Shown here in pieces: positions 4,774-63,825 of a DNA stretch of 64,000 nucleotides. Numbering within the stretch: position 1 is the stretch's first letter; each line of letters opens with the position of its first letter. This stretch comes from a virus. The notes beneath the pieces were generated by a model. The model did no database searches. It saw only the letters and a list, made by a program, of their open reading frames with translations, and was not told the DNA's origin. The DNA lies in IMG/VR virus record IMGVR_UViG_3300027313_000002, positions 1 through 64,000 of that record; one strand, written 5' to 3'. The position numbers and the translations under genes were made by a program.

Positions 4774-4919
4774 GGGTAGGCCCGGGTGCCGCACACGGGC
4801 GGGCCGAGGTGCACCCGGACGCAGGCGTAGCCGTCCGGGCGAGGCGCCAGGACCAGCAGCAGCACGGTGCCGGCCGCGACCACGGCCAGCACGGCCGCGC
4901 TGAACGCCCGGGCACCCAT
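4770..4919 (-). CDS. Small membrane or exported protein (49 aa)
   Basis: ATG 4919 gives MGARAFSAAVLAVVAAGTVL with one hydrophobic helix, then a short tail with two Cys (YACVRVHLGPPVCG) that could form a disulfide outside the cell. It overlaps the downstream GTG by 4 bp. It is divergent from the plus-strand peptide gene at 5012. Confidence 0.5.
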   Translation of the reverse strand: MGARAFSAAVLAVVAAGTVLLLVLAPRPDGYACVRVHLGPPVCGTRAYP

Positions 4920-4947
4920 GCCTGTGTACTTCGGCACCGGGGGTGTA

Positions 4948-4976
4948 TTGACGGTACGTAGCCACGCGAGTACGTT
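4948..4976 (+). promoter_or_regulatory. Plus-strand promoter of the secreted peptide gene
   Basis: TTGACG (4948-4953), a 17-bp spacer, then TACGTT (4971-4976). The TTGACT-nn-AGTCAA palindrome found at the minus-strand promoters is absent. Instead GTACGT and AGTACGT lie at the spacer edges. The transcript would start near 4983 and read into the gene at 5012. Confidence 0.65.
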
Positions 4977-5011
4977 CTGTTATTAAGCGCCGCCGGACCG
5001 GAAGGATGCCC

Positions 5012-5167
5012 ATGACCAGGAACCTGCGCCGCCTCGGTGCCGCCCTCGCCATCCTCGGCGGCGTGCTCGCCGCGTCCGGGGGCACCGCCGCCGCGGCCTC
5101 CGCGGTCACCTGGCACGCCCCCGCGGCCCCGCACGGCATCGCCCCCGACGTCACCTGGGGCGGCTGA
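5012..5167 (+). CDS. Secreted small peptide (51 aa)
   Basis: A short plus-strand gene inside a minus-strand region. ATG 5012 is preferred to ATG 5006 because of the GGAAGG ribosome site. The N-terminus (MTRNLRRLGAALAILGGVLA) is a classical Sec signal: Arg-rich n-region, hydrophobic core, and an Ala-x-Ala stretch near residues 25-31. Cleavage would leave about 20 residues ending APDVTWGG. It has its own promoter without the repressor palindrome, so lysogenic expression is plausible. Family unknown. It could be a signalling, surface or superinfection peptide. Confidence 0.65.
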   Translation: MTRNLRRLGAALAILGGVLAASGGTAAAASAVTWHAPAAPHGIAPDVTWGG

Positions 5168-5172
5168 GCCCC

Positions 5173-5550
5173 TTACCCGGGGCCGAGGCCGGACCGGCGG
5201 CTGGCCGGGCGCACCTGGCTCAGCGGCACCTGGTAGCTGGACGTCACGCCCTCGGGGACGACCCGGGCGGTGAACTCGGTCCCGGCGTCCAGGCCGGCGA
5301 ACGTGCCGCGGCGGGTGACGCCGCCCTCGCCGAACTGGTACTCGACCGGCTGGCCGGGCTCAGGCCAGCCCGCGGCGTCCAGCTGGGCCAGCGCGGTCAG
5401 CACCGCGGCGGCCGAGTCCTCGTAGCTCCAGCCGGGATGACGGACCCCGGCGGCGGCCAGCGCGGCGGCCACCTCCCGCGTGCCCGGCGGCGGGCCCTTG
5501 ACCAGATGCAGAACGGGCCGGGCCGGCGTCATGCCGGTGCTGTCGCTCAA
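5173..5550 (-). CDS. Hypothetical protein (125 aa), TTG start
   Basis: The best start is TTG 5550, four bases after GGGAGG (MSDSTGMTPARPVLHLVKGP). The more upstream ATG has no ribosome site. The C-terminal half is beta-rich (PVEYQFGEGGVTRRGTFAGL) and may be a small barrel. It is monocistronic under the promoter at 5596-5623 and convergent with the peptide gene at 5012. No family is recognised. Confidence 0.6.
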   Translation of the reverse strand: MSDSTGMTPARPVLHLVKGPPPGTREVAAALAAAGVRHPGWSYEDSAAAVLTALAQLDAAGWPEPGQPVEYQFGEGGVTRRGTFAGLDAGTEFTARVVPEGVTSSYQVPLSQVRPASRRSGLGPG

Positions 5551-5595
5551 TGCGCCTCCCTGTCCCGGAACAGTCACGGGTTGCACGGATCCCCC

Positions 5596-5623
5596 AGCCT
5601 ACCGGCTCGTTGACTCCGGTCAA
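5596..5623 (-). promoter_or_regulatory. Promoter with operator over the -35
   Basis: Minus strand TTGACC (5623-5618), 16-bp spacer, TAGGCT (5601-5596). The operator variant (plus strand TTGACTCCGGTCAA, 5610-5623) covers the -35 instead of the -10. It drives the gene at 5173-5550. Confidence 0.7.
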
Positions 5624-5632
5624 AGACGACAC

Positions 5633-5663
5633 GCAGCCCCGGGCCGCCACGACCCGGGGCTGC
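5633..5663 (-). terminator. Intrinsic-type terminator hairpin
   Basis: A perfect 11-bp stem GCAGCCCCGGG / CCCGGGGCTGC with a 9-nt loop lies just downstream of the secreted protein gene 5683-6288. A T-containing stretch follows on the minus strand. It separates that gene from the next promoter. Confidence 0.75.
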
Positions 5664-5682
5664 GCTCTCCTCTCGTGCTAGG

Positions 5683-6288
5683 TCAGCGCTCGGCCTTGAC
5701 CGGGTACAGCGCGGCCCAGGTGCTGCCCGCGGGCACGGCCTGGGAGCCGTCCTGGCTCCAGGTGCCGGCCAGCTGGCCCTTGATCTCGCCCCGGTGGTGC
5801 CGCGGCTGCGGCAGCACCTTGACGGTGCCGGTGAAGGTCCGGTTGCCCTGCACCGAGCCGGCCGGGTAGCTGACGGTGAACTTCACCGTGGCCGTGCCGT
5901 CCCGGTTCTCGGTGACGCTGCCGTCCTTGATCCGCATGACCAGCAGCTTGTCCTGGCCCGTGGTGAGCAGGTAGTACTTCGCGTCGGTCAGGTAGCCGCG
6001 CAGTGCGTAGACCTGGCCGGGCCGGTGACCGCGCAGCATGAACGCCGACTGGCTGAACCGGACCTGATAGGTCCAGGTCTGGCCGGCGAACGGCAGCGAG
6101 ATCTCGTTGCGCCCGGACAGGTCCCACTTCTGGGCCTGCTGGTAGCGCACTTGCGTGACGGCAGCCGGGTGAACGGCTGCCGTGGCGGTGGCCGCGCTGG
6201 CGGCCGGGGCGGCGAGCGACGCGCCGAGGACGGCGGCGGCGCCCGCTGCTGACAGGGCTATGATGGCCCTGCGCATGAGGTGTGGCAT
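5683..6288 (-). CDS. Secreted protein, unknown function (201 aa)
   Basis: Starts MPHLMRRAIIALSAAGAAAV, a Sec signal peptide with a likely AASA cleavage site near residue 32. The mature part is a beta-rich domain (TWTYQVRFSQSAFMLRGHRP, KFTVSYPAGSVQGNRTFTGT) with no Cys and no catalytic pattern I can name. It is bounded by hairpin terminators on both sides. An exported phage protein of this kind probably acts on the host surface. Confidence 0.7.
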   Translation of the reverse strand: MPHLMRRAIIALSAAGAAAVLGASLAAPAASAATATAAVHPAAVTQVRYQQAQKWDLSGRNEISLPFAGQTWTYQVRFSQSAFMLRGHRPGQVYALRGYLTDAKYYLLTTGQDKLLVMRIKDGSVTENRDGTATVKFTVSYPAGSVQGNRTFTGTVKVLPQPRHHRGEIKGQLAGTWSQDGSQAVPAGSTWAALYPVKAER

Positions 6289-22422: not shown

Positions 22423-22592
22423 GGATGTCCTCCCTTGACGTGGCCCGCGCTGGCTGCCGCGGCGTTCACGGCCTCCCCCAGGCGGGCGATGAGATGGCCT
22501 GCGGCCTGGCCCGCGCCGTGCGGGTCCCGGGCCGCCAGGACCAGGACGGCCGCCGCGGCAGCGGCCAGGGCCAGGTGCGCGAGCGCGGTCAC
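22419..22592 (-). CDS. Small exported or membrane protein (57 aa)
   Basis: GTG 22592 overlaps the TraB-like stop. Begins MTALAHLALAAAAAVLVLAA, a hydrophobic segment, then an amphipathic helix (GQAAGHLIARLGEAVNAAAA). Its position after TraB is where small Spd (spread) genes sit in Streptomyces transfer operons, but the similarity is positional only. Confidence 0.5.
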   Translation of the reverse strand: MTALAHLALAAAAAAVLVLAARDPHGAGQAAGHLIARLGEAVNAAAASAGHVKGGHP

Positions 22593-24562
22593 GCCTCCTC
22601 CCCGGGCTCGTCCCGCGGGTCCTCATCCTGCCCTGCCGCGGGCGGCGGCGCCTCGCAGACGGCCCAGTGCTTGACCGGCGCGTCGCCCAGGTACTGCACC
22701 ACGCCGCGGTCCTCCAGCACGGCCATGGCGCCCTCCGGGCCGTACAGCCAGGACCGGGACCGCCCGGCCCGCTGGCAGACCCCGGACTCGTTCAGGTCCC
22801 GGGCAGTCACCTCGGCCTGGCCGGCGGCGTTGCGCGGGCGGGCCGGGTCGTCACGCAGGGCCCACAGCAGGTCGCGGACCAGGGCGATGGCCTGCGCCGG
22901 GGCGGGCTTGGCCGCGGGCGGCGGCGCGCCCGCCTTATCGTACCGGCCACCCACGGGCCTGTCCGTGCTGGTAGGAGACGGGCCGGGCTTGGCCAGCAGC
23001 GCGTCCATCGTGCAGCCGTCCACCTCGCGGTCGCGGTCCTGGGCGTACTGCTGCACGTGCTCGAAGATGGCCTGCGCGCCGTCCCCCCAGGAGTACAGCC
23101 GGACCGGCAGCGCCTTGTCCGCGTCCGGGATGGTGAGCGTGTCCCACACGCTCATCCCCGGGTAGGACGCCCCCCACAGCTGCGGCCGGGCGCCCCGCTG
23201 CCGCTGGGTCTCGCTCAGCCCCAGCTCGGCCTGGCCGGCGTCGGCCACCCCGAAGCACACGTGGCCCTGCTGGGCGCGGGCTACCGTCGGGCCCTGGCTG
23301 TGGTGCACCGACTGCTGGGAGGAGTCGGCCCGGATGCCGGCCGACCGGACGTTGCGCTGCAGGGACACCCACAGGTCCTCCAGCTGCTTGCGGTCCAGCA
23401 GCGCCAGGATGTCCGGGGTCTCCTCGAAGAGGGCGTGCAGGTAGCTCAGGCCGCAGCCCCGCTCCCACTCGGTCATCTTGCGCTTCGCCAGGTAGTCGCA
23501 GCGGGCCAGCCGGGCCCGCTTGAGCGCGTACAGCAGCTCGACGGCATCCTCGGGCTCCACGGCCAGCGGCAGCGCCATCGCTGCCTCCAGCGCGCCGAGG
23601 AACTGGCGCCGCTTGGCGACGTCCGCGGCCACCACCGCGTAGTCGCGCCGGGTGACGCCCTCGGCGATCATGTTCCAGGCGTAGCCCATCGACTTGGCCG
23701 ACCCGGACTGGCCCATCACCTTGACCGAGTGCGAGGGCAGCAGGCGGTACAGGAACAGGTCGGAGTCCTGCCGCAGGCCGAGGCGGAACGGCGCATCAGC
23801 GATGCTCTCCCCGGGAGCGGACGGCCCCGGCCACGGGACGGGCCCGCGCAGCAGCACCTGCGGGTCGGTGATCTTGACGTTGCCGACCCCCGCGTCGCCC
23901 AGGTCGCTGGTCACCGTCCAGCTGCCCGGCGGGTGCCGCAGGGCGGCCTCCACCCGCTCGATGTCCTCAGCGGCCTCGCCGACCACCATGCCGTCCGGCA
24001 GCTGCAGCCCGGCCTCGGTCACCACCGCCCGCTGGCCGCCCGCCGGGGACCCGGCCCGGCGGTGCCGGACGCTGAACAGCCGGGCGCCCTGCATGCCGAC
24101 CGGCTCGGCCTTGGCCGCGAACGCCTTGGCCAGGTCCCGGTTGTCGCCCGCGCTCAGCCACAGGTCCCAGATGACGCAGGCGCACAGCCCGCCCAGGAAG
24201 TAGGCCATCGCCAGCACCCGGCCGAAGCCGAAGATCAGGAACGCGGCCAGCGCCAGGGCGGCCAACGCCGCGGTGACCGGGCCGATCAGCCGACCGACCA
24301 CGGCGGCCCGGTGCCAGCGCAGGTGCAGGTCGAAGCCGGTCACGGCGGTGCCCAGCGCCAGCACCGTCAGCACCGTCCCGGCCCGGAACCAGAACCCGCT
24401 CTCGATGAGCAGGAACAGCTTCAGCACCAGCCCGGTCAGGGTCAGCCCGATCCAGGCGCCCCAGGGCAGCACCATGTGCCAGAGCTTGATCAGGACCTCG
24501 TTCCGGCCGCTCTGGTGCTGCGCGGACGGCGTCGGCCGCCCGCTGACGGTCCGGCTAGGCAC
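22589..24562 (-). CDS. FtsK/SpoIIIE-type DNA translocase, TraB-like (657 aa)
   Basis: Four membrane helices lie in the first 140 residues (for example GAWIGLTLTGLVLKLFLLIE, YFLGGLCACVIWDLWLSAGD). The motor domain follows, with a P-loop-like GQSGSAKS near residue 284; the second conserved Gly is Ala but Lys and Ser are kept. A Walker B-like AVVAADVAKR follows at about 310. The C-terminus (about 560-640) has a winged-helix-like segment (LNESGVCQRAGRSRSWLYGP), as in FtsK-gamma/TraB DNA-recognition domains. Such hexameric pumps move double-stranded DNA through septa or between mycelia. Co-transcribed with SpdB- and Xis-like genes. Confidence 0.8.
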   Translation of the reverse strand: MPSRTVSGRPTPSAQHQSGRNEVLIKLWHMVLPWGAWIGLTLTGLVLKLFLLIESGFWFRAGTVLTVLALGTAVTGFDLHLRWHRAAVVGRLIGPVTAALAALALAAFLIFGFGRVLAMAYFLGGLCACVIWDLWLSAGDNRDLAKAFAAKAEPVGMQGARLFSVRHRRAGSPAGGQRAVVTEAGLQLPDGMVVGEAAEDIERVEAALRHPPGSWTVTSDLGDAGVGNVKITDPQVLLRGPVPWPGPSAPGESIADAPFRLGLRQDSDLFLYRLLPSHSVKVMGQSGSAKSMGYAWNMIAEGVTRRDYAVVAADVAKRRQFLGALEAAMALPLAVEPEDAVELLYALKRARLARCDYLAKRKMTEWERGCGLSYLHALFEETPDILALLDRKQLEDLWVSLQRNVRSAGIRADSSQQSVHHSQGPTVARAQQGHVCFGVADAGQAELGLSETQRQRGARPQLWGASYPGMSVWDTLTIPDADKALPVRLYSWGDGAQAIFEHVQQYAQDRDREVDGCTMDALLAKPGPSPTSTDRPVGGRYDKAGAPPPAAKPAPAQAIALVRDLLWALRDDPARPRNAAGQAEVTARDLNESGVCQRAGRSRSWLYGPEGAMAVLEDRGVVQYLGDAPVKHWAVCEAPPPAAGQDEDPRDEPGEEA

Positions 24563-25289
24563 GGCTCACCTCCGGCGCGTGCCCGTTGACGTGCTCGCGC
24601 AGCAGCTGGCTGGCCGACTGGCGGCTGCAGCCGAGATCGCGGGCCAGCTCGTTGCGGCCCCCGGCGGCGGCCACCCGGCGCGCCAGCTCCTCCGGCGGCA
24701 GCTTGCGCCACTCGGGAATGGCGCCCGCCCTGCCACGCGGCTTGCGCCCGGCAGGGCGGCGCTGGACCCGCCGGGGGGCGCCGGGCCCGGGTGAGGCAGG
24801 CTCCTGCTCCGGCGCGCTCCCGGCGGCGGGCTCAGGCTCCGGCTGCGCCTCCGCGGCAGCCGGGGTCTCGCTGGCCATCCGCACCAGCCACACGGTCAGC
24901 TCATAGGCGGCGACGAACGCCACCGCGGGCCAGGCGCTGATGCCCGGCCGCAGCCACACGCCCCACGAGGGGTAATCCGGCGACAGGTTGATGATGATGG
25001 TGACCGCGATGCCGGCGATCAGCACCAGCCAGGCAGGCACGGTCCGCCAGAAACTCGCGTGCTTGCGGGCCGCCGCCCAGACGGCCAGGGTGGCGGCGAC
25101 GATCAGGCCGTCCACGCTCCACGGGAACAGCCCCGCATCCCAGTGCGCCTGGCCGTACCGGATGGCCTGCTCGTACTGATGCTGGTAAGACCCGGATGCA
25201 GCGACGCCCGCGACGAACGCGGTCACCGCGCAGGCGGCGGCGACCAGCCGCCAGGACTGCTCGATGCGGAGCCAGGACGGCACCTGCAT
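24555..25289 (-). CDS. SpdB-like DUF2637 membrane protein with HTH tail (244 aa)
   Basis: ATG 25289. Four membrane helices at about residues 15-35, 55-75, 85-103 and 115-135 (SVDGLIVAATLAVWAAARK, VLIAGIAVTIIINLSPDYPS) match DUF2637, found in SpdB-type spread proteins and their relatives. After an acidic/Pro linker, the C-terminus (ELARRVAAAGGRNELARDLG, then CSRQSASQLLREHV) is a helix-turn-helix. ATGA overlap with the HTH gene before it and an 8-bp overlap with TraB. Confidence 0.75.
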   Translation of the reverse strand: MQVPSWLRIEQSWRLVAAACAVTAFVAGVAASGSYQHQYEQAIRYGQAHWDAGLFPWSVDGLIVAATLAVWAAARKHASFWRTVPAWLVLIAGIAVTIIINLSPDYPSWGVWLRPGISAWPAVAFVAAYELTVWLVRMASETPAAAEAQPEPEPAAGSAPEQEPASPGPGAPRRVQRRPAGRKPRGRAGAIPEWRKLPPEELARRVAAAGGRNELARDLGCSRQSASQLLREHVNGHAPEVSRA

Positions 25290-25552
25290 CAGGCCACCTC
25301 CTCGGCCGGGCGCTCCGCCCACCACGCGGCGGTCACCTCGGACATGTCCCCGGGACCGCTGCGCCCGGCCGAGGCCCGCACCGCATCCAGCCAGCTGACG
25401 TAGACCGACAGCTGCCCGCCGAAGGTGCGCACCGACGGCATCCGCCCGGCGTTCGCCCACTCGCGCAGCGCATCCTCCGAGCGGCCGAGCAGCCGGGCTG
25501 CCATCGGCAGGGTGGTCAGCCGCTCCAGCCGCTCCCATCCGGTTACCGCCAT
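25289..25552 (-). CDS. Excisionase-like HTH protein (87 aa)
   Basis: I chose ATG 25552 after CGGGAGG. LTTLPMAARLLGRSEDALRE, then WANAGRMPSVRTFGGQLSVY is the winged-helix pattern of MerR/excisionase small proteins (helix-turn-helix followed by a proline and a wing). In AICEs such genes sit next to the transfer genes. It is first in the operon divergent from the GntR regulator. It could bind att or the tra promoter. Confidence 0.65.
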   Translation of the reverse strand: MAVTGWERLERLTTLPMAARLLGRSEDALREWANAGRMPSVRTFGGQLSVYVSWLDAVRASAGRSGPGDMSEVTAAWWAERPAEEVA

Positions 25553-25597
25553 CCGCCTGGTCCTCCCGGGGAATCCTGGGAATCTCCGTATCCGGCC

Positions 25598-25626
25598 AAT
25601 GTACTGCGTACCGTACACGACCGCAA
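25598..25626 (-). promoter_or_regulatory. Tra-operon promoter with GTAC operator
   Basis: Minus strand TTGCGG (25626-25621), 17 bp, TACATT (25603-25598). Three GTAC tetrads (25601, 25608, 25613) fill the spacer and -10 edge. The palindrome common to the early operons is absent. The GntR gene starts 73 bp away on the other strand, so GntR is the likely ligand-responsive repressor here. Confidence 0.6.
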
Positions 25627-25698
25627 GCAACCGGCTTACCGTTTCATCAGGCCCGACGTAAGATCAGGGCGTACCATCACCAGCACACGGAGGACGCG

Positions 25699-26466
25699 GT
25701 GTCTCCTCGGGCCCAGCGCACGCTGCCGCTGCACCAGCAGATTTACGACCACTACGAGCAGCTCATCACCGACGGGAACCTGCAGCCAGGCGACAAGCTG
25801 CCGTCCGTCCGCCGGACCGCCGAGGAGTGGGGCACCGGCCAGCAGGCCGCCCAGCACGCCTACGCACTGCTGCGCGCGGCCAAGCTGACCCGGACCAGCA
25901 CCGAGGGGACCTTCGTCGCGCAGCGTCGCGCCACCTACGGCCCGCAGCAGCGGGCCCGGTCGGTGCGGTTCTCCCCGGGCACCTCCACCGATGTCCGGGA
26001 CGCGGGCAGAGTCCTGATCACGCCGCCGCACCCGTGGGATTACGTCATCGCGATCCTCGGCCTGGAGCCCGACCATGAGGGCGACTTCGAGGTGATCCGG
26101 CGCGAGGAGCTGATCAGCGACGAGGGCGGACCGGTCATGCTGCTGGTCACCTGGGCCTCGCCGGGCTGGCTGCCGCGGGTGCCCGAGCTGGCCGTGGCCG
26201 ACATCCTGCCGGACCCGCGCGGCGCGGCGCACCTGATCGCGGACCGCTGGCCAGTCACGGTCGAATGGGGCGAGTACTCCGACGAGACCCGGCTGCCGAT
26301 GGACGACGGCCGCGAAATCCCGCTGCTGGAGCTGGCACCCGGTGAATACGTGGGCGGCAAGACCTGGAAGTGGGGCCACGGCGCCGGCGAGGCCGAGCAG
26401 CTGCTCGCCTACGAGGAGGCCACAGTCAAGCGGAACCGGGTCATCCGGCTGTACATCGAGCCCTAG
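25699..26466 (+). CDS. GntR-family regulator with UTRA domain (255 aa)
   Basis: GTG 25699 five bases after GGAGG. N-terminal winged helix (about 8-75: PLHQQIYDHYEQLITDGNLQ, PGDKLPSVRRTAEEWG), then a UTRA effector domain (about 100-250) ending VIRLYIEP. This is the HutC/FarR subfamily organisation, also used by KorSA-type repressors that silence AICE transfer genes. Divergent from the tra-like operon. Some of the winged-helix turn differs from consensus (GTGQQAAQHAYALLRA). The ligand is unknown. Confidence 0.8.
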   Translation: MSPRAQRTLPLHQQIYDHYEQLITDGNLQPGDKLPSVRRTAEEWGTGQQAAQHAYALLRAAKLTRTSTEGTFVAQRRATYGPQQRARSVRFSPGTSTDVRDAGRVLITPPHPWDYVIAILGLEPDHEGDFEVIRREELISDEGGPVMLLVTWASPGWLPRVPELAVADILPDPRGAAHLIADRWPVTVEWGEYSDETRLPMDDGREIPLLELAPGEYVGGKTWKWGHGAGEAEQLLAYEEATVKRNRVIRLYIEP

Positions 26467-51034: not shown

Positions 51035-53362
51035 TTACCCGCGCCTCCACCCGGCAGGCGCGGCCAGCGCGGCGATGCCGGCCTCCTCCGGCTCCCGACG
51101 GCAGCCCATGGCCAGGTCGTACACGGCCGCGCCCGGGCCGGCCACCTCGTCGCGGATACGCCGGAACAGCGCCTCGATGACCACCTGCCAGTCGCACATC
51201 AGCGGGATGGTGCGGGCGGCCAGCTCGGCCTTGCGCCGGGCCTCCTCGCGATGCGTGTAGATGTGCCAGATGACGTCCTTCAGGTGCGGCACCTGGACCC
51301 GGGCGTCATGAGCGGCCCACGGCTTCTGCTCGAAGGTCGGGGCCAGCTCGTAGCCCAGCGGGTAGGCGTAGTCGGCGTTCAGCCACTGCCGGTGGCCGCC
51401 GAAGTCGGTGGCGGCCACCGCCCCGCCCGTGGTCATGAACTCCAGCGCGGGCAGGTTCTTGCCCTCCCCCCTGGACGGCGCCAGCAGCACGTGCCCGGAG
51501 GCGTAGAAGTCCTGCAGCGTGCGGTGGTCGAACGCGTCGACGAACACCTTGATCCGCTGCTCCTCGAAGACCTTGTTCAGCTCGGGGAACAGGTCTCCCG
51601 GCAAGATGGTATGCAGCGCGAAGGTGGCGTTGTCGAAGCCGTCCGGCCATGGGCCCGGCCGCTCGAACTTCAGCTCGTTGAAGGCCTGGATGGCGGTCCA
51701 CGGGCACTTGCGGGCGCCGAGCGCGCCGTGCATGAGGAAGCCGAACCGGCCCAGGCCGTCCCAGTCCCGGGTGAGGAAGTGCCACTCCGAACTGTCGTAG
51801 CCGCCCTGCAGGACGCCGCGGCATACCCGGCGCGGGATGTAGGGCTCCAGCGCGGCCAGGCTCACCTCGTCATAGCCCAGCAGCAGGTCGAACCAGCGCA
51901 GCGCCGACGGCAGCCGGGTGCGGCCCCGGCAGTGCGGGACCAGCCCGGACACGCCCCTGCCGTCCCTGCCCGGGCCGCCGGCAAATTCCCACATCGTGTT
52001 ACCTGTGTAGAAGATGTGACCCTCATGCCGGGCCAGCCAGTTCCCGTGCTTAACCGACGGGCACCAGATCACGCCCTGGTACGTCTCTCGGGTCGGTGAC
52101 CGGGTATTGAGCACCGCCGTGTCCCGGGAAGAGAGGCGCACCGTAGCAAGGTGCGGATGCTGAGTCCTGTGCGGCCGGGACACCGGCTGGCCGGCCAGCA
52201 CGCAGGCAGCCACGAAAGCATCCAAGCGAGGCCCGCGAGCCTGCGAGAAAACCCGCTCGCTCTCGCATTCATGCCCGTCAGCCAGCAGGCTGACCTTAAT
52301 GAACAGCTCCAGCTGAGCTGGCGTAAGCGACAGCAGGAACCTCATCGACGGCACTTTGCCCGGGCAGGCGGCAAGGACCTCCTGAGACACCGGGCGAGAG
52401 ATATTGAAGATGATCATCCCGTCCGGCTTAGGTGGCGCCTCGGTCCAGGTCTGATACCCAGCCCGCTGCCCGAGAGCGCCCCGACCGGATTCACGCATGT
52501 AGCAGGTGTGGCACAGCCCGCGCGCCCGGGTGACCCGGCCGAGGCTGTCTGGCTTAGTGCTACCGCACAAGTCGCATGCCTCGGGCTTCCCGTTCGGCTG
52601 AGCCGGTCCGCACAGAGCCAGCAGCGCCGCGCGGATGCGCTGCGTCTTGGACGGGTTGACGCGCTCATTCTGCCCGATGCGGACAGACTTCCCGCGCTCC
52701 AGCCATCCCTCGGTGTAGGTCCAGGCGACCAGCTCAACGAACGCATCCGTGTACTTGGACTCTTGCGGCAGCTGAGCGCACGGCACGCTGCGGATGATCT
52801 GGTCACCCGCCTTCAAGGCCGCCGACGTCCGCCAGGCCAGGTGCTGCGCCGCGTCCCGGATGAGCCAACGGTGCGACGGGTTAGTCAGCGACTCGTGCCC
52901 GGGCGCCTTCAGGCGCACCATCTCGTGGCACGCATCGCCCGACCGGTAAACATCCCGGATGTCCTGCCATTCAGACAAGCCGGTCGCCGGATTGATCCCG
53001 AGTGCCTGGTCACTGGCCTCGATCTCCTCATGCCAGAGCCAGCCTCGCCTGGTGAAGATTTCCACGTTCTGTGATACGCACCAGGCGACCGCCACCCTGG
53101 TAGCCAGGCGCGCCTCCCTGGTGATGTACAGGTGAGCGGGATCCCAGTGATTGATCAGCAAGTCGAACGGCGGCTTCAGCTCGCGCGTGAACAGGTGCAC
53201 AAGGTCCCGGGGGATGGGCACATCGAGCCAGGTGGGCTGCGGGTACACCTCGCAGCCCCAGCGGTCCAGCCCCCGGATGAGGCCCCAGCCGTCAGTGCCG
53301 TACCCAGAGAACTCGCTAAACGGGCTCTTGACGATGACCTTCAGCGGGCGGTCAGCAGGCAC
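51035..53362 (-). CDS. GT4-like glycosyltransferase interrupted by an intein (775 aa precursor)
   Basis: GTG 53362. Exteins: residues 1-94 (MPADRPLKVIVKSPFSEFSG, ending RVAVAW) and 456-775 (TMWEFAGG, GFLMHGALGARKCPWTAIQA, LAPSRGEGKNLPALEFMTTG). The joined protein of 414 residues has the GT-B features of family 4 transferases, including the SRGEGKNLPALEFM phosphate/sugar-binding helix. The intein splits the conserved W-TMWE strand. It may glycosylate virion proteins or phage-modified surfaces, as the second transferase beside the capsid gene suggests. Confidence 0.8.
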   Translation of the reverse strand: MPADRPLKVIVKSPFSEFSGYGTDGWGLIRGLDRWGCEVYPQPTWLDVPIPRDLVHLFTRELKPPFDLLINHWDPAHLYITREARLATRVAVAWCVSQNVEIFTRRGWLWHEEIEASDQALGINPATGLSEWQDIRDVYRSGDACHEMVRLKAPGHESLTNPSHRWLIRDAAQHLAWRTSAALKAGDQIIRSVPCAQLPQESKYTDAFVELVAWTYTEGWLERGKSVRIGQNERVNPSKTQRIRAALLALCGPAQPNGKPEACDLCGSTKPDSLGRVTRARGLCHTCYMRESGRGALGQRAGYQTWTEAPPKPDGMIIFNISRPVSQEVLAACPGKVPSMRFLLSLTPAQLELFIKVSLLADGHECESERVFSQARGPRLDAFVAACVLAGQPVSRPHRTQHPHLATVRLSSRDTAVLNTRSPTRETYQGVIWCPSVKHGNWLARHEGHIFYTGNTMWEFAGGPGRDGRGVSGLVPHCRGRTRLPSALRWFDLLLGYDEVSLAALEPYIPRRVCRGVLQGGYDSSEWHFLTRDWDGLGRFGFLMHGALGARKCPWTAIQAFNELKFERPGPWPDGFDNATFALHTILPGDLFPELNKVFEEQRIKVFVDAFDHRTLQDFYASGHVLLAPSRGEGKNLPALEFMTTGGAVAATDFGGHRQWLNADYAYPLGYELAPTFEQKPWAAHDARVQVPHLKDVIWHIYTHREEARRKAELAARTIPLMCDWQVVIEALFRRIRDEVAGPGAAVYDLAMGCRREPEEAGIAALAAPAGWRRG
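51998..53080 (-). mobile_element. LAGLIDADG intein in the glycosyltransferase (361 aa)
   Basis: Residues 95-455. Block A CVSQNVEIFTRRGWLWHEEI; block B GHESLTNPSHRWLI with T-x-x-H; two LAGLIDADG-like helices (FVELVAWTYTEGWLE and LFIKVSLLADGHE); C-terminal block HEGHIFYTGN followed by Thr. Nucleophiles are Cys1 and +1 Thr. The usual penultimate His is Gly. A C-x-x-C pair (ACDLCGSTK, LCHTCYMR) inserted between the endonuclease motifs suggests an extra zinc knuckle. Confidence 0.85.
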
Positions 53363-55514: not shown

Positions 55515-55936
55515 CACGCCCGGAGAATCGGGTCGGTGAACCGCCGGGTCGGGATGCCGCAGCGCTTCTCGGCATAGTCGGCGCAGTGCACCGCGCCGTG
55601 CGAGCCGTGCGAGCCGTGCAGCGGGCAATCCTCCTTCTCGCACGGCCCGATGAAGGCCAGGCACGCGGTGGCACCGAGATCAGCCATGGCCTCGCTGCGC
55701 TCGAAGCCGGCCCGCGGGTTGAACCGGCCGTCCCGGTACCAGTTCCTGACCGGGTGCGGCTCGACCTGGCCGCCCAGGTCCTTCCAGATGCGCTCCAGGT
55801 CCTGGTCGCCCTTCCGGGCATGCCCGGAGACCAGGACGGCGTCCGGGGCCAGCTCGTGCGCCCGGCCGAGCACTCGGCAGGCCAGCGCCCAGTCGTTCCA
55901 GCTGCGGGAGCAGGTGATCAGGATGCGACGGGTCAC
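55514..55936 (-). CDS. SLOG-family (DUF2493) protein (140 aa)
   Basis: MTRRILITCSRSWNDWALAC, DAVLVSGHARKGDQDLERIW, EVEP-type strand then FIGPCEKEDCP. The Rossmann-like start and the V-SGHARKGD loop match the YspA/cpYpsA-related SLOG domain, which is proposed to bind nucleotide-derived ligands or sense nucleic acid. A C-terminal Cys/His cluster (GPCEKEDCPLHGSHGSHGAV, HCADYAEKRC) may bind zinc. Located next to an HNH gene. Confidence 0.7.
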   Translation of the reverse strand: MTRRILITCSRSWNDWALACRVLGRAHELAPDAVLVSGHARKGDQDLERIWKDLGGQVEPHPVRNWYRDGRFNPRAGFERSEAMADLGATACLAFIGPCEKEDCPLHGSHGSHGAVHCADYAEKRCGIPTRRFTDPILRA

Positions 55937-56667
55937 GTCAGGATTCCCTCGCGCTCTAGTACGGCGACCGCCCGCTGGTAGACCCCGGCAGCCTCATCCT
56001 CGGTGAGGAAGGTCCCGAGGTGAATACGCGCGACCCAGCCGGTGCGCCCCTCCCCGTAGCGCAGGTCCTTGATCTTGCTCACGCCCTTGGAACGGCCATC
56101 CCGCCGATCCTTATTGCGGTTCTGCTGTGAGTACGTCGCCCAGCGCACCTTGCCTGGCTCGTAATTGCCGTTTCCGTCCCGGCGGTCAAGGCTCCAGCCA
56201 CGCCCGGGATGCGGCCCTATTTCCGTCTCGACATCCTCGATGAACTGGCGCAGGTCGTGCCAGCGGTCACAGACCTCGATCCCCCGGCCACCGTAGTGCT
56301 CCCACCGGACATTATCCGGGTTCTCGCACCGGCTCAACATGTTGTGCCAGACCGCGTAGAGGGGATGCCCGGATAGCCCGTAGCCTGGCTGCTTAGCGAC
56401 CCAGGCTGCCTTGGCAACCTTGATGGTCTCCCGGCCGATGCGCGCAGACTGCTCCCGCCGCGCGCAGCCACAGGACGTGGTGTTGATCCGGCCTCTGCGC
56501 TCCACCAGAGACAGCAGCGCGGCCTCGTAGTTGCTGCCGCAGTCACAGCGGAGCAAGGCCCCGCGCTTGCCGCCTGTGACCCTGATCTGAGGGTCCAGCA
56601 CCACACCGCGGCCAATACGCTGGCCGACTTCGAAGTTTAGGGTAGGAGGTCTTCCTGTCTTCGGCAT
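55933..56667 (-). CDS. HNH homing endonuclease (244 aa)
   Basis: MPKTGRPPTLNFEVGQRIGR. CDCGSNY and CGCARREQ form an N-terminal zinc knuckle. MLSRCENPDNVRWEHYGGRG, GWSLDRRDGNGNYEPGKVRW and ATYSQQNRNK make the HNH core of the large phage family. A C-terminal AP2-like part (WVARIHLGTFLTEDEAAGVY) follows. Lower GC than neighbours; between a SLOG gene and the connector gene. Confidence 0.85.
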   Translation of the reverse strand: MPKTGRPPTLNFEVGQRIGRGVVLDPQIRVTGGKRGALLRCDCGSNYEAALLSLVERRGRINTTSCGCARREQSARIGRETIKVAKAAWVAKQPGYGLSGHPLYAVWHNMLSRCENPDNVRWEHYGGRGIEVCDRWHDLRQFIEDVETEIGPHPGRGWSLDRRDGNGNYEPGKVRWATYSQQNRNKDRRDGRSKGVSKIKDLRYGEGRTGWVARIHLGTFLTEDEAAGVYQRAVAVLEREGILT

Positions 56668-58735: not shown

Positions 58736-59479
58736 CTACACCACGATGTCCACGTCCCCGGCAGCGACCTCATGCCAGCGCTGCGGCGGGTAGTCCTCCT
58801 GATAGCAGCTGCTGCGGGTCGACGGGTACATGTGCGCGGACAGCTCGGAGCGGTACAGCGCGCTGACCTCGCCGATGTGCAGCGCACGGGACCGCAGCGG
58901 GAACAGGCACCGCACGCCCGCCTCGCCGAGCCGGATGCGCAGCTGGGCGTCCCAGCCGAGCGCGTTGCCCTCCGGCACCCCCCAGCCGGGCTCGATGAAC
59001 TCCTCCCAGCAGACCTTCCAGGTGCCCCAGGTCAGCGGGCTGAACCACGGCAGCCGCACGACGGCACCCGCCCGGGCATCCCGGCTGGACAGCACGTGCG
59101 CGCAGGCGATCATGATGTCCGGGTCCGCCGCATAGGTCGCCGCAGCCCAGCTGAAGTACTCCAGCACGTCGGCGGACACCACGACGTCCTCCTCGGCCAG
59201 CACCGCGAACGGGGCGCTGCTGCGGAAGGCGAGATCCAGGGCCCGGCGCGTGTTGGCCACCACGCCGAGGCGCTCGCGGTTGACCGAGCAGTGCGCGTGC
59301 CGGAAGGACCGCTCCGCCCAGGCCTCGAAGTCCGCCACCGGGAACGACGGGTCCGGCTCGATGCAGAACAGCAGGTAGGCGTCGTCTGCACCGCGGACCC
59401 GGGCCCAGGACTCCAGGGCCGCGCGCAGGTAGTCCTGCCGTTGCCCGCTGACCGTGAACGCGACAGTGACGGCTAGCAG
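58736..59479 (-). CDS. GT-A glycosyltransferase, GNT-I-like (about 247 aa)
   Basis: Coding sequence extends upstream of ATG/GTG 59338: AVTVAFTVSGQRQDYLRAAL, then YLLFCIEPDPSFPVADFEAW is the natural N-terminal strand-loop, so I use CTG 59479. PFAVLAEEDVVVSADVLEYF holds the acidic metal site (EED). LPWFSPLTWGTWKVCWEEFI and NALGWDAQLRIRLGEAGV match the acceptor region of GT13-type enzymes. Directly downstream of the capsid gene, which suggests it glycosylates the capsid or tail. Confidence 0.7.
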   Translation of the reverse strand: MLAVTVAFTVSGQRQDYLRAALESWARVRGADDAYLLFCIEPDPSFPVADFEAWAERSFRHAHCSVNRERLGVVANTRRALDLAFRSSAPFAVLAEEDVVVSADVLEYFSWAAATYAADPDIMIACAHVLSSRDARAGAVVRLPWFSPLTWGTWKVCWEEFIEPGWGVPEGNALGWDAQLRIRLGEAGVRCLFPLRSRALHIGEVSALYRSELSAHMYPSTRSSCYQEDYPPQRWHEVAAGDVDIVV

Positions 59480-59494
59480 AGCGATGCCGCCAGG

Positions 59495-60700
59495 CTAGTC
59501 GATGGTGCCGCCGCCCGGGGCGTTGCCCACCGCGCCAGCCCAGTACCCGGCCGGGGCCGCGGTCGCTCCGGTGCCGATGATGCCGGTGGCCACGAGCATC
59601 TGCTCAGGCCTGGTCACAATAGGCAGAAGATGCCATTCCAGAAGGTACTGCCTGGCCGACGGATCTTTTTCCTTCCAGGTTTTCGCGTACTTTCCAGTAA
59701 ATCCATCGGGCGCTTCATCATCGGCGGTCGGGCCGATTAGCAGCTCGATAGGCCGCTGGTCGGTGTAGTTGCCCAAATACATCTGTCCATCGGGGACAAA
59801 AAAGCTGATATTGCCGAGGTCCGACTCGAAGACCTGCTCCACTGTGTTCCATACGAGCCCCATAAAGCCGGACATTATGCCCGTGCTATAAAACTCGTCC
59901 TTCATACGATCTGAGAGCATGGTCGCCGGGATATTGACCGTGGCGCCGGAGGTAGCCTGGGTCCAGGCTTCCATGAGGGCCGCCATTGTCACCGAGGTCG
60001 CGAATACTTCCTTGGCCGGGACGCGCCCGTGGATTTGCACGACCCGCTTCCAGGAGCGGACGTCCTCCAGGATGGACACCGGGTTGGCGTACGTTATCGT
60101 ACCGGTCCCGGCGTTCAGCCGCGTGCCCGCCTGGCCCAGCGTGAGCGGGTTGCTCGGCGAGCCGGTGCCCGTGCCGCCGGTCGTGTAGTAGACCAGCGAG
60201 GGGTTGTTGACCCACGGCGTGGCCGGGGTGACGAAATGCGAGGCGGGGAACTTGTAGTCCACGACCGCCTGGATGTCCGCGTAGTTGTAATTGATACCGC
60301 CGCCGAGGGCCTGCCAGCAGCTCCATTCCGCAAAATTGTCGAACCTCATATTGAGGTCATTGATCTCGCGGAGGACTGCCTGCTCGGCGTTTACCCGCGC
60401 GATTTCCCCGGGCACCCGGAGCCAGTGAAGGGTGGTCGGCTCGAACACTTTCTTCTCGCGAAGATAAATGAATGCAGCCGACTCTTGCGAGCGGCCGAGA
60501 CGGGAAATTATGTGCGCTTCCGAATTGGGGACGTTAGGCTTAGCGACCGCACGCGAGCCCTTTACCACATCCCATGTCGCGGACGGGAAAGGCCAGGGAG
60601 TCTGATCCAGCCTGTTCATGAGCACGAGCGTTTCCGGCGTGACGAACTTCTCCACGACTCCGCGCAGGACCACGGGCTCAAGGAGGCTGATGTCTGGCAT
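59495..60700 (-). CDS. Major capsid protein, phage capsid E-like (401 aa)
   Basis: ATG 60700 after AAGGGAG (MPDISLLEPVVLRGVVEKFV). The N-terminal arm (LMNRLDQTPWPFPSATWDVV, KGSRAVAKPNVPNSEAHIIS), RVPGEIARVNAEQAVLREIN and the C-terminal TGKYAKTWKEKDPSARQYLL, EWHLLPIVTRPEQM fit the capsid protein E type of HK97-fold coats. Lower GC in patches than flanking genes. Separated from the upstream cargo cassette by the terminator at 60842. Confidence 0.8.
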   Translation of the reverse strand: MPDISLLEPVVLRGVVEKFVTPETLVLMNRLDQTPWPFPSATWDVVKGSRAVAKPNVPNSEAHIISRLGRSQESAAFIYLREKKVFEPTTLHWLRVPGEIARVNAEQAVLREINDLNMRFDNFAEWSCWQALGGGINYNYADIQAVVDYKFPASHFVTPATPWVNNPSLVYYTTGGTGTGSPSNPLTLGQAGTRLNAGTGTITYANPVSILEDVRSWKRVVQIHGRVPAKEVFATSVTMAALMEAWTQATSGATVNIPATMLSDRMKDEFYSTGIMSGFMGLVWNTVEQVFESDLGNISFFVPDGQMYLGNYTDQRPIELLIGPTADDEAPDGFTGKYAKTWKEKDPSARQYLLEWHLLPIVTRPEQMLVATGIIGTGATAAPAGYWAGAVGNAPGGGTID

Positions 60701-60841
60701 TTGCCGGCTCCCTTTCAGGTGCTTTCCGCTACGGAGGCAGCGGCACCTGCCCGGTGCCCGGCCTGCGCCGCCCCCCCGGGGGAGCCACCTGGCTGGCCTG
60801 GCCGCATGATCGCGGTTACCCGGTCTTATCGACCCGGGCAC

Positions 60842-60878
60842 GCGAGAGCCCCCGGCGCTGCGACGCCGGGGGTCTCGC
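60842..60878 (-). terminator. Terminator between peroxidase and capsid genes
   Basis: A 15-bp stem with one G-T pair (GCGAGAGCCCCCGGCG / CGCCGGGGGTCTCGC, 60842-60878) lies 29 bp after the peroxidase stop. It isolates the cargo cassette from the capsid gene. The following 140 bp (60701-60841) must carry the capsid mRNA start, though I see no clear promoter. Confidence 0.75.
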
Positions 60879-60906
60879 GCGGACAAGTGCCGCGGCCGGG
60901 ATGCGA

Positions 60907-62643
60907 TCAGGACTGCGGGCCGGCGTTCTGGCCGAGGGCAGGGGCCGGGCTGCTGCCGGACGGGACCACCCCGGCGAACCTCAGCAGGTCCGCCAGGCCG
61001 AACGACCCGTCCGCCGCGGCAATCGGCGCCGCTGGCTTGAAGTTGCTGGCGATGGCACCGCCCTTGTCGACCTGGAGAAGGCGCAGCAGCACATCAGTGC
61101 AGATCCTGGCCCCCACGGGGCCGAGCATCGCCTGGGTGTTGTTGCCGGCCGTGCCGGTGCCGTCGAAATTGTCCACCGTGGTGACGCCCTGGTTCTGCAG
61201 GAACGCCTCGTAGCCGACGTAGAACAGCAGCGGCGTGCCGTCCTCGAAGCCGGGGATGACGGTCGGGTCGATCGCCGTGCCGGGCGCAATTGGGGTCAGC
61301 CCGTAGGCCCTGGCCACGTCCTGCCCGGAGGGCATCTGGTAGAAGAACGCGCGGATGAAGTCGCGGAACATCAGCGAGTTGGACCCGGACGGCTGCGCGC
61401 CGCTCGGGCCGCCGATCGGCAGGCCCGCCCCGGTGCCGAGCAGCGCCGCGCCGGGCGGCTGGCCGAACAGCGACTGCGCGACCATGTGCAGGCCATCGGC
61501 GCCGGGCTGCTTGAGGACCTGGAGCGCCAGGCCGGGCACCGAGGGGTCATACAGCGCCTCGTGCCACTGCCGCCAGTCAATCTGGTGGTCGAGCGTCAGC
61601 GGATACCCGCCGTGCAGGTCACCCGCGGACTTGTTCGGCACGCCGCCTCCTCCGGCCGTGCCGGTGGCCCCGGCCACGCCCGTGAACAGGTTGTTCCGGC
61701 TGTCGGAGTTCGGGGAGATCACCGGGTTGGGCGCGTAGGCGTTCCTGACCAAGAAGTGACCGAACCTGTACGCGCCGACCGAGAACTCGATCGGCATGAC
61801 GGGCTTGGTCACGTCGGCGCCGGGGTCGTAGACCCGGCCTTTGCCGTCCAGCATGTCGGTGATGGTCTGCTGGCCGAAGAATGTCGGCATCAGGTCATGC
61901 AGGATGAGCCACTGCCAGTAGTGGATGACTGTCTTCTGGGCCTTGGCGAAGTGCTTGATCTTGAGCTGGTCGACCACGGCGTTATGGAACAGCAGCAACG
62001 AGACATGCAATTGCGAGATGATCTCGTTCTCGTCGTCGCGGGTCTCGACCACGATCGCCGAGCCGTCCGCGCGGCGGGGGAGGTCGACGACGCCGTTGAC
62101 GTTGGGGCCGACGATGAAGTGCAGCTTGTCGGCCTGGTACAGCTCGGGCGACACGCTCGGGCCGCCGCCGTAGATCATGGACAAGTCGACCTTCTTGGTC
62201 TCGTAGTCCAGGACCGGGTTGCCGTCCGGATCTAGCAGCGGGTCACGCGCCGACTTGGCCTTGAAGGAGAACGCGGCGGTGGGCTGCGGCTGCACGTCCA
62301 GGGTCACGTCGTGGTCGAGGATCTGGAGGGCGTAGGTGCGGGCGGCACCGAACGTGGTGTCAAACTTGCCGCCGGGCTGGAGCATGGCATCCGCCAGCGC
62401 GGCCAGCGCGGTGGCCGGGTCGCCGTTCGGGACGAACCCGGTCAGCTTGGGGAACATCCGGCCGAACATGGCGCCGGACGGGTCCTGGCCGGGCACCGAG
62501 ACGGCCCGGGTCGGGTCGAGCGCCATTGAAGCGGACGCCGGGCTGGCCAGCGCCCGGCCGCCGCCCTTCAGCAAGACGACGGCAGCGGGCGCGCCCACCA
62601 GGCCCAGGCGCAGCAGGGTGCGGCGGGACATATCAGCGGTCAT
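60907..62643 (-). CDS. Tat-exported animal-type heme peroxidase (578 aa)
   Basis: ATG 62643 with GAGAGGA upstream. The Tat signal SRRTLLRLGLVGAPAAVVLL marks export of a folded protein. Catalytic blocks of the peroxidase-cyclooxygenase superfamily are complete: distal ILDHDVTLDV (His near 113), VETRDDENEIISQLHVSLLL (Arg/Glu near 201-204) and proximal GAYRFGHFLVRNAY (His near 296). These enzymes oxidise halides or organic substrates with peroxide. It lies between head decoration and capsid genes with its own terminator, so it is cargo rather than a virion part. Host-surface defence or competitor killing is inference. Confidence 0.85.
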   Translation of the reverse strand: MTADMSRRTLLRLGLVGAPAAVVLLKGGGRALASPASASMALDPTRAVSVPGQDPSGAMFGRMFPKLTGFVPNGDPATALAALADAMLQPGGKFDTTFGAARTYALQILDHDVTLDVQPQPTAAFSFKAKSARDPLLDPDGNPVLDYETKKVDLSMIYGGGPSVSPELYQADKLHFIVGPNVNGVVDLPRRADGSAIVVETRDDENEIISQLHVSLLLFHNAVVDQLKIKHFAKAQKTVIHYWQWLILHDLMPTFFGQQTITDMLDGKGRVYDPGADVTKPVMPIEFSVGAYRFGHFLVRNAYAPNPVISPNSDSRNNLFTGVAGATGTAGGGGVPNKSAGDLHGGYPLTLDHQIDWRQWHEALYDPSVPGLALQVLKQPGADGLHMVAQSLFGQPPGAALLGTGAGLPIGGPSGAQPSGSNSLMFRDFIRAFFYQMPSGQDVARAYGLTPIAPGTAIDPTVIPGFEDGTPLLFYVGYEAFLQNQGVTTVDNFDGTGTAGNNTQAMLGPVGARICTDVLLRLLQVDKGGAIASNFKPAAPIAAADGSFGLADLLRFAGVVPSGSSPAPALGQNAGPQS

Positions 62644-62684
62644 GAGCGGTTTCCTCTCAGGTGGCTTCCCCCTCACGAGCCGAA

Positions 62685-63095
62685 TCAGCTCAGGATGTAC
62701 ACGGACACGTGATTCCGGAGACTGACACAGATGATGGACGGCACGTGGATGACCACGGTCCGGTGCAGGACCACCGAGTAAGTGGACTCGGCGGTAGTCG
62801 CCAGCCGGCAGCCGGAAAACGGGCTCGCCGACGGCGGCGCAGTGGGGGCGGCCGGGGACGTCACCGCGGGCGTGCTGCTCGGGCTAACAGTCACGGTGGG
62901 CGTCGGGGTCACGGTTGCCGCCGGGGTCACGGTTGCCGCCGGGGTCACGGTCACGGTCACGGTGGGGGTCGGCGAACTGGTGTCGGCCGGGCCAGCCGCA
63001 TGAGTGCTGGCCGCCAGGGCGGTGCCGCCAATGGCCAGCGCGGCGACGATTGCGCCCAAGACCGCGGCGACACGGATCATCAGTGAACGGGGCAT
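62685..63095 (-). CDS. Secreted TVT-repeat protein (136 aa)
   Basis: ATG 63095. Signal peptide MPRSLMIRVAAVLGAIVAAL. Residues about 40-95 are Thr/Val/Pro repeats (TVTVTVTPAATVTPAATVTP) encoded by 18-bp tandem repeats. The C-terminal 40 residues have two Cys (SGCRLATTAES, SIICVSLRN) and a strongly beta end. It is likely exported with the peroxidase and could act as its surface partner. Function unknown. Confidence 0.65.
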   Translation of the reverse strand: MPRSLMIRVAAVLGAIVAALAIGGTALAASTHAAGPADTSSPTPTVTVTVTPAATVTPAATVTPTPTVTVSPSSTPAVTSPAAPTAPPSASPFSGCRLATTAESTYSVVLHRTVVIHVPSIICVSLRNHVSVYILS

Positions 63096-63147: not shown

Positions 63148-63165
63148 TTCTGAATTGCTTCAGAA
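63148..63165. other. 18-bp palindrome at decoration-gene stop
   Basis: TTCTGAA-TTGC-TTCAGAA (plus strand), with 7-bp arms, includes the stop codon of the decoration gene. It is one of few AT-rich palindromes here. It could be a weak terminator or an operator for the cargo cassette that starts 50 bp further on. Confidence 0.5.
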
Positions 63166-63825
63166 CACGAACGCGTTCACCCCAGGCGCGGTGGCCGGGA
63201 GCTGGCCGTCCATCGGGCCGCCGGGGAACGGCGCCGGGCCCTGCGCGGCGACCGAACCGCCGTACGGCACGTACCGCGCGCCCAGCTGGGCCAGGATCTG
63301 GCCTGCCCCGGATCCGAGGCCGTTGCCGACCACGTTGGTGGTCTCGGTGCCAGACACGATGTTTCCGTTCAGGATGCCGCGGATGACCATGTTGCCGAGC
63401 GCGTCGTTGGCCACCTTGCCCGCCGGGCTGGCCGGGAACACGACCGTGCCGCCGGCCAGCGTAATACCGTCCGGGTTCACGCTGTTGGTGTTGGAGTTGT
63501 ACGCGGCCACCGAGGCCGCGCCCGGGCCGCCCGTGTCCCGCGCATCGCGCAGCACGCCCATGGCCACGCCCCGCCCGTCGGTGGCGGCGGCCTGGTAGGC
63601 GAAGTACTTGCCGCTGGCCGTGTGCCTGGCCACCACGCAGCCGGTGGGCAGCACGCCCTGGCCCGCGGCCAAGGTGACGCCCCGCTGGGTGTAGCCGGCC
63701 ATGGACAGGAGCAGCTCGGCGACCGCTTCGGCATGGAACTCGTCACCGTAGGGTGCGCCCTGCTCATGAGTCGGCTTCTGGTACTGGGCCGGGTAGTCGA
63801 ACTCCACGCTGTCGCTGGCTGGCAT
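63160..63825 (-). CDS. Head decoration protein, lambda gpD-like (221 aa)
   Basis: ATG 63825 after GGGGAGG. MPASDSVEFDYPAQYQKPTH; the RGVTLAAGQGVLPTGCVVAR, then HTASGKYFAYQAAATDGRGV and AMGVLRDARD pattern is that of HDPD/gpD proteins that cement the capsid. The C-terminal extension (APFPGGPMDGQLPATAPGVN) is longer than in lambda. The cargo cassette lies between this gene and the capsid gene. Confidence 0.75.
   Translation of the reverse strand: MPASDSVEFDYPAQYQKPTHEQGAPYGDEFHAEAVAELLLSMAGYTQRGVTLAAGQGVLPTGCVVARHTASGKYFAYQAAATDGRGVAMGVLRDARDTGGPGAASVAAYNSNTNSVNPDGITLAGGTVVFPASPAGKVANDALGNMVIRGILNGNIVSGTETTNVVGNGLGSGAGQILAQLGARYVPYGGSVAAQGPAPFPGGPMDGQLPATAPGVNAFVF

What the first reader, a model, noticed from the sequence alone, without database searches (positions are those of the whole stretch)
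60842..63095. Tat-exported heme peroxidase cargo inserted between decoration and capsid genes
An animal-type peroxidase with all catalytic blocks and a Tat signal, preceded by a secreted TVT-repeat protein and closed by its own terminator, interrupts the normally contiguous decoration-capsid order. I know of no described role for a phage-borne, exported peroxidase. It may change host fitness (oxidative or halogenating chemistry at the cell surface, competitor or phage defence) during lysogeny.
Basis: partly seen in the sequence, partly recalled or inferred. Interest (0 to 1): 0.85.

Follow-up and report, generated by a model that had tools for sequence, protein, structure and literature searches.

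The report
Phage-borne exported heme peroxidase gene
This virus of soil bacteria carries, wedged between two of its shell-building genes, a gene for an exported heme peroxidase (an enzyme of the kind animals use to make germ-killing oxidants); relatives of that gene hop as a single unit between the structural genes of many unrelated viruses, which points to a widespread but undescribed way for viruses to change the chemistry outside the cell they infect.

Summary
Window 60907-62643 (-) encodes a 578-aa heme peroxidase of the peroxidase-cyclooxygenase superfamily (PF03098) with a twin-arginine signal. It sits between the head-decoration and capsid genes, and two further assemblies show the same arrangement. 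All catalytic motifs are present, except that the proximal Asn is Asp and the Gly before the distal Gln is Leu.

At least 32 other viral contigs encode relatives, nearly all inside late structural modules of phages with unrelated capsids (decoration/capsid, neck/tail-terminator, portal/protease, terminase/portal). They form one cluster, remote from cellular homologues (36% identity at most). DNA homology between carriers of unrelated capsid type ends at the coding sequence. Empty sites exist in close relatives. dN/dS is 0.16-0.45. No sequenced phage isolate searched carries one.

The lysogeny reading is not supported: integrase in 1 of 17 carrier records, no prophage with this capsid in 396 actinobacterial genomes, and in several phages the gene overlaps late structural genes. 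The 'own terminator' belongs to the junction, since cargo-less relatives have it.

Most likely it is a transferable late gene whose product is exported to the wall of the infected cell during lytic growth. Substrate and benefit are unknown.

The parts
60907..62643 (-). Tat-exported heme peroxidase, 578 aa (PF03098); alternative GTG start at 62676
62605..62628 (-). twin-arginine motif SRRTLLRL, followed by a hydrophobic stretch and ALA-S cleavage-like site
   Evidence: sequence; twin Arg kept in all 14 members of the Tat subclade
62308..62325 (-). distal motif QILDHD (Gln, heme-ester Asp, catalytic His, Ca-binding Asp)
   Evidence: signature from PMC4420034
62026..62040 (-). RDDEN: distal Arg and heme-ester Glu (R-x-x-E)
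61756..61773 (-). AYRFGH: proximal His ligand
61351..61368 (-). FRDFIR: Asp in place of the usual proximal Asn (shared with L005, L006, L107, L109)
62685..63095 (-). secreted TVT/TPT-repeat ORF with signal peptide, same operon orientation; found only in this phage
63160..63825 (-). head decoration protein (HDPD, phrog_49), upstream flank
60841..60880 (-). terminator-like GC stem-loop of the junction (MFE z = -2.9)
60727..60811 (-). conserved structured RNA leader of the capsid gene (model R1)
59495..60700 (-). major capsid protein (Phage_cap_E, phrog_29), downstream flank

Best explanation
A transferable single-gene cargo of lytic phages of soil actinobacteria. A dedicated viral lineage of exported peroxidase-cyclooxygenase-superfamily heme peroxidases is passed between unrelated phages and inserted at junctions of late structural genes. 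In this phage it sits in the decoration-gene unit, upstream of the junction hairpin and the structured capsid leader, so it would be transcribed with the late head genes. The protein would bind heme in the cytoplasm, leave folded through the host Tat pore, and use hydrogen peroxide in the wall space to oxidise small molecules or surface groups while the cell makes virions; lysis then releases it. Shown: gene, fold and motifs, export signal, position, recurrence, mobility, purifying selection, empty sites. Inferred: late expression, heme loading, actual export, catalysis. Not known: substrate and benefit. My favoured benefit is conditioning of the envelope and surroundings of the infected cell (surface oxidation or removal of harmful small molecules).
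For: PF03098 match and fold; motifs invariant in viral members; export signal in all members checked, Tat in one subclade and Sec-like in the other. One viral cluster (100/99 support with a single long cellular branch inside; a strict viral clade is not rejected, p-AU 0.34). Homology between phages of unrelated capsid type is limited to the CDS, e.g. L062/L080 81% over 4318-5837 only. Empty sites: decoration-capsid gap about 200 bp in 15 loci, 187 bp in phage Magritte; neck-tail terminator 16 bp apart in L172 against a 1.6-kb insert in L080. The same slot holds either of two peroxidase subclades in two phage types: window/L008 and L005/L080. Structural neighbours by PHROGs; ATGA overlaps with neighbouring genes in L080, L109, L117, L124. 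dN/dS 0.16-0.45. Near absence of integrases and prophages.
Against: No expression, export or activity data. Asp for the proximal Asn and Leu for Gly in this member could alter activity. Viral contigs are recognised partly by structural genes, which favours finding cargo near them; L107 carries the gene alone between opposite-strand genes, and the context of L088 and L091 is unclear. Records are incomplete, so integrases may be missed. dN/dS by a crude method in GC-rich genes. Model TM-scores are moderate (about 0.5).
Confidence: 0.62

Rival explanations
1. Lysogenic-conversion gene: expressed from the prophage, giving the host a fitness gain through exported oxidative or halogenating chemistry.
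For: Own signal peptide and solitary gene, as in classical morons; a hairpin follows it; one carrier, L111's record, has an integrase.
Against: Integrase in 1 of 17 carriers and 1 of 14 relatives, no serine recombinase in carriers, no clear prophage with this capsid in 396 genomes; no peroxidase of the viral cluster seen in a bacterial chromosome; ATGA overlaps with late genes; the hairpin is ancestral to the junction.
Confidence: 0.12
2. Virion component: the peroxidase is packaged in or on the particle, as DyP peroxidases are in encapsulins, and acts at entry or in free particles.
For: Sits beside capsid, portal and neck genes in many phages.
Against: Cleavable export signals in all members checked would remove it from the assembly compartment; occurs with unrelated capsids and necks, so no shared docking partner; optional in close relatives.
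Confidence: 0.08
3. Passive passenger: structural-gene junctions collect foreign genes through homing-endonuclease breaks, and the peroxidase has no benefit to the phage.
For: The junction holds many unrelated cargoes, three of them HNH/endonuclease VII genes; an HNH gene also lies at 55933-56667.
Against: Purifying selection between copies in different phages, intact motifs in all viral members, an export signal always present, recurrent use of the same gene family in many phage types.
Confidence: 0.13
4. Chromosomal contamination or mis-assembly.
For: Cellular homologues occur in about 8% of actinobacterial genomes sampled.
Against: Identical junctions in two further assemblies; a 39%-identical peroxidase at the same place in a sister phage seen in eight assemblies; viral cluster separate from cellular ones.
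Confidence: 0.01

Closest known systems
Peroxidase-cyclooxygenase superfamily (PF03098): bacterial peroxicins, Cyanobacterium TDX16 peroxidase 8s6c, lactoperoxidase, myeloperoxidase
   Same: Fold, distal Q-x-x-D-H-D, R-x-x-E, proximal His, residues for two heme ester bonds
   Different: Phage-encoded, Tat signal, Asp instead of proximal Asn and Leu instead of Gly in this member; at most 36% identity to the cellular relatives found
Haem peroxidase of Orpheovirus IHUMI-LCC2 (giant virus of amoebae)
   Same: Only other viral protein of this fold among predicted viral structures (E=3e-8)
   Different: Eukaryotic giant virus, 13% identity, not a phage structural-gene cargo
Phage morons / auxiliary metabolic genes
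   Same: Single gene, optional in close relatives, moved alone between unrelated phages
   Different: In several phages fused into the late operon by start/stop overlaps instead of carrying its own promoter and terminator; exported enzyme
Extracellular animal-type heme peroxidases of Mn(II)-oxidising bacteria (MopA, PMC6247904)
   Same: Superfamily and secretion
   Different: Cellular proteins; no phage link described in the papers found

Membership tests
Peroxidase-cyclooxygenase superfamily (PF03098) | Pfam profile above curated cut-off and peroxidase fold | tested here: met
   30.3 bits against a cut-off of 25; fold match E=1e-10
Peroxidase-cyclooxygenase superfamily (PF03098) | Distal signature G-Q-x-x-D-H-D | tested here: inconclusive
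   Q-x-x-D-H-D met; the Gly is Leu in this member only and Gly in the other viral members
Peroxidase-cyclooxygenase superfamily (PF03098) | R-x-x-E (catalytic Arg, ester Glu) and proximal His | tested here: met
   RDDE and AYRFGH; invariant in viral members
Peroxidase-cyclooxygenase superfamily (PF03098) | Proximal His hydrogen-bonded to Asn (all families except 4 and 7) | tested here: not met
   Asp at that column in window, L005, L006, L107, L109 and some cellular members; Asn in the other viral members where the column is present. Superfamily membership still stands on fold and profile; assignment to a particular family within it is left open
Peroxidase-cyclooxygenase superfamily (PF03098) | Covalently bound heme, peroxidase activity | not testable with these tools
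   Residues present; needs purified protein
Tat substrate | Twin-Arg motif, hydrophobic core, signal-peptidase site | tested here: met
   SRRTLLRLGLVGAPAAVVLLKGGGRALA-SP, by eye on the sequence
Tat substrate | Tat-dependent export | not testable with these tools
   Needs a tatC mutant
Phage moron | Absent from close relatives, clean boundaries, unrelated flanks | tested here: met
Phage moron | Own promoter and terminator | tested here: not met
   No promoter-like site on its strand (weak test in actinophages); hairpin is ancestral to the junction; gene overlaps in other phages
Lysogenic-conversion gene | Carried by temperate phages | tested here: inconclusive
   1 of 17 carriers with an integrase, but records are fragments
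Encapsulin-type DyP cargo | DyP peroxidase with C-terminal targeting peptide | tested here: not met
   PF03098 is the only Pfam match, no DyP match; N-terminal export signal; the targeting peptide itself was not tested

The most novel reading that the evidence does not exclude
Phages of soil actinobacteria keep a virus-specific lineage of exported heme peroxidases as an extracellular counter-defence: made late and released at lysis, the enzyme oxidises antiphage small molecules secreted by Streptomyces and kin (for example DNA-intercalating anthracyclines, PMC13250531) or oxidises receptors on cells and debris, protecting progeny in the neighbourhood.
Probability: 0.12. Interest if true: 0.85.

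Novelty: new variant of a known kind. Interest (0 to 1): 0.64.

Why it matters
Phage cargo genes are mostly known as intracellular metabolic enzymes or prophage fitness genes. A mobile, selected, exported heme peroxidase that recurs at many structural-gene junctions of apparently lytic phages would mean that phages alter oxidative chemistry outside the infected cell, and would make testable whether phages answer the chemical antiphage defences of soil actinobacteria. It also shows that structural-gene junctions serve as exchange slots where the same position is filled by different versions of one enzyme.

Tried and rejected
Homologues in annotated phages: none in 50,697 records with either of two queries. 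In plasmids: only distant cellular-type peroxidases, under 60% identity (best listed about 37%). NCBIfam: no model matches. Rfam at the locus: nothing. Serine recombinases in carriers: none. tRNAs for host assignment: none. TVT-repeat protein as a conserved partner: found only in this phage, so set aside. Promoter scan: uninformative in this GC range. A scan by the L005 tail-terminator protein alone returned only its own contig; a capsid-based scan solved it. Mis-assembly and virion cargo were considered and rejected or ranked low (see rivals). The literature searched held no phage-encoded PF03098 peroxidase; subscription papers and preprints are not held.

Full report
What is there. The window is the first 64,000 bases of a 77,292-base IMG/VR viral record. 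On the minus strand the order is decoration protein (63160-63825, HDPD), a secreted TVT-repeat ORF (62685-63095), the peroxidase (60907-62643), a GC hairpin (60841-60880), a structured leader (60727-60811) and the major capsid protein (59495-60700, Phage_cap_E). Beyond the window lie a Mu-like protease/scaffold and a Mu-like portal gene, so the region is a phage head module. Two other assemblies have the same junctions at 100%.

The protein. PF03098 matches above its curated threshold. A profile of viral relatives reaches lactoperoxidase-like and peroxinectin chains, and the AlphaFold2 model matches solved superfamily members. Against the published signatures (PMC4420034), QxxDHD, RxxE and the proximal His are kept. 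The Gly before the distal Gln is Leu, and the proximal Asn is Asp; the Asp is shared by the whole subclade window/L005/L006/L107/L109, while the other viral members with the column present have Asn. The N-terminus is a good twin-arginine signal.

Not a one-off. Scans with three queries found peroxidases of this group on at least 32 other viral contigs (counted by contig name). Their neighbours are neck/tail completion and tail terminator (L005, L080, L084), head-tail adaptor and major tail (L006, L114), portal and maturation protease (L086), terminase and portal (L090), major head proteins (L117, L129), portal (L122, L125), and decoration/capsid (window, L008). L107 is an exception, lying alone between opposite-strand genes, and the context of L088 and L091 is unclear. 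The phages have unrelated capsids (phrog_29, phrog_1650, phrog_10).

Mobility. Between phages of unrelated capsid type the DNA similarity begins and ends with the coding sequence, for example 81% between L062 and L080 over bases 4318-5837 of a gene at 4274-5836, and nothing else. Empty sites are seen in both well-sampled lineages: decoration-capsid gaps of about 200 bp in 15 loci and 187 bp in the isolate Magritte; neck and tail terminator 16 bp apart in L172, where L080 (84% identical neck and terminator) has the peroxidase, whose stop overlaps the terminator's start. In each of the two lineages the same slot is filled by members of two different peroxidase subclades (window and L008, 39% identical, while capsids are 94% and decoration proteins 86% identical; L005 and L080). 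Either the slots attract this cargo or the versions replace each other.

Origin and selection. In a tree of 59 proteins the 21 viral sequences fall in one strongly supported group, with one long-branched Solirubrobacterales sequence inside; a strict viral clade is not rejected (p-AU 0.34). The nearest cellular relatives found are at most 36% identical; distant homologues occur in 30 of 396 actinobacterial genomes. dN/dS between phage copies is 0.16-0.45, so the gene has been kept working.

How it probably works. Integrase genes are nearly absent from carriers and from the large relatives, and no clear prophage with this capsid was found (one weak match, E=3e-4, in 396 genomes); records are fragments, so this is suggestive only. 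ATGA overlaps with neighbouring genes in four phages tie expression to the late operon. In the window the cassette lies upstream of the hairpin that also closes the decoration unit in cargo-less relatives. I therefore infer late expression, heme loading in the cytoplasm, Tat export, and peroxide-driven oxidation in the wall space. What is oxidised, and why that helps the phage, is open. Envelope conditioning or removal of harmful small molecules fits timing and location better than prophage fitness, but no result here tests it.

A cargo slot. The same decoration-capsid slot holds HNH and endonuclease VII genes, a LysM protein, a 686-aa secreted Fn3 protein and small unknown proteins in other relatives. 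Endonuclease genes at the slot offer a plausible route for insertion (inference).

Limits. Pattern-based scans give lower bounds. Contigs recognised as viral through structural genes favour this kind of neighbourhood. No structure or activity is measured, and the model has low-confidence loops.

Noticed in passing
window 60727-60811 (-); L166:4890-4973; 37 relatives in alignment A6: A structured RNA leader precedes the capsid-E gene in all 37 distinct relatives aligned: 98% of cells paired (34-54% in slid controls), 49 double changes against 11 in shuffles; one copy in the window. No Rfam match at E<=1. It is also present, unannotated, upstream of the capsid gene of the isolate Microbacterium phage Magritte (E=4e-13), where it could be tested.
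   Followed up: partly
decoration-capsid junction, loci L008-L075: The decoration-capsid junction of this phage group is a cargo hot spot, from about 200 bp (empty) to 2.4 kb, with HNH/endonuclease VII, LysM, secreted Fn3 and unknown genes in different relatives.
   Followed up: partly
window 58736-59338 (-), 51035-53362 (-); L006:8182-9222; L114:2343-3392; L109:9770-10528: Glycosyltransferase-like genes lie close to the peroxidase in several of the phages, which may point to a common theme of surface modification.
   Followed up: no
L107:4574-6319: In this contig the peroxidase stands alone between genes of the opposite strand, so here it must have its own promoter.
   Followed up: no
window 22589-26466: A DUF2637 gene and a GntR regulator in the early region, resembling genes of actinomycete plasmids and integrative elements (resemblance from memory).
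   Followed up: no
BFVD A0A2I2L5A1 (Orpheovirus): A giant amoeba virus encodes a haem peroxidase of the same fold, the only significant viral structure match.
   Followed up: no
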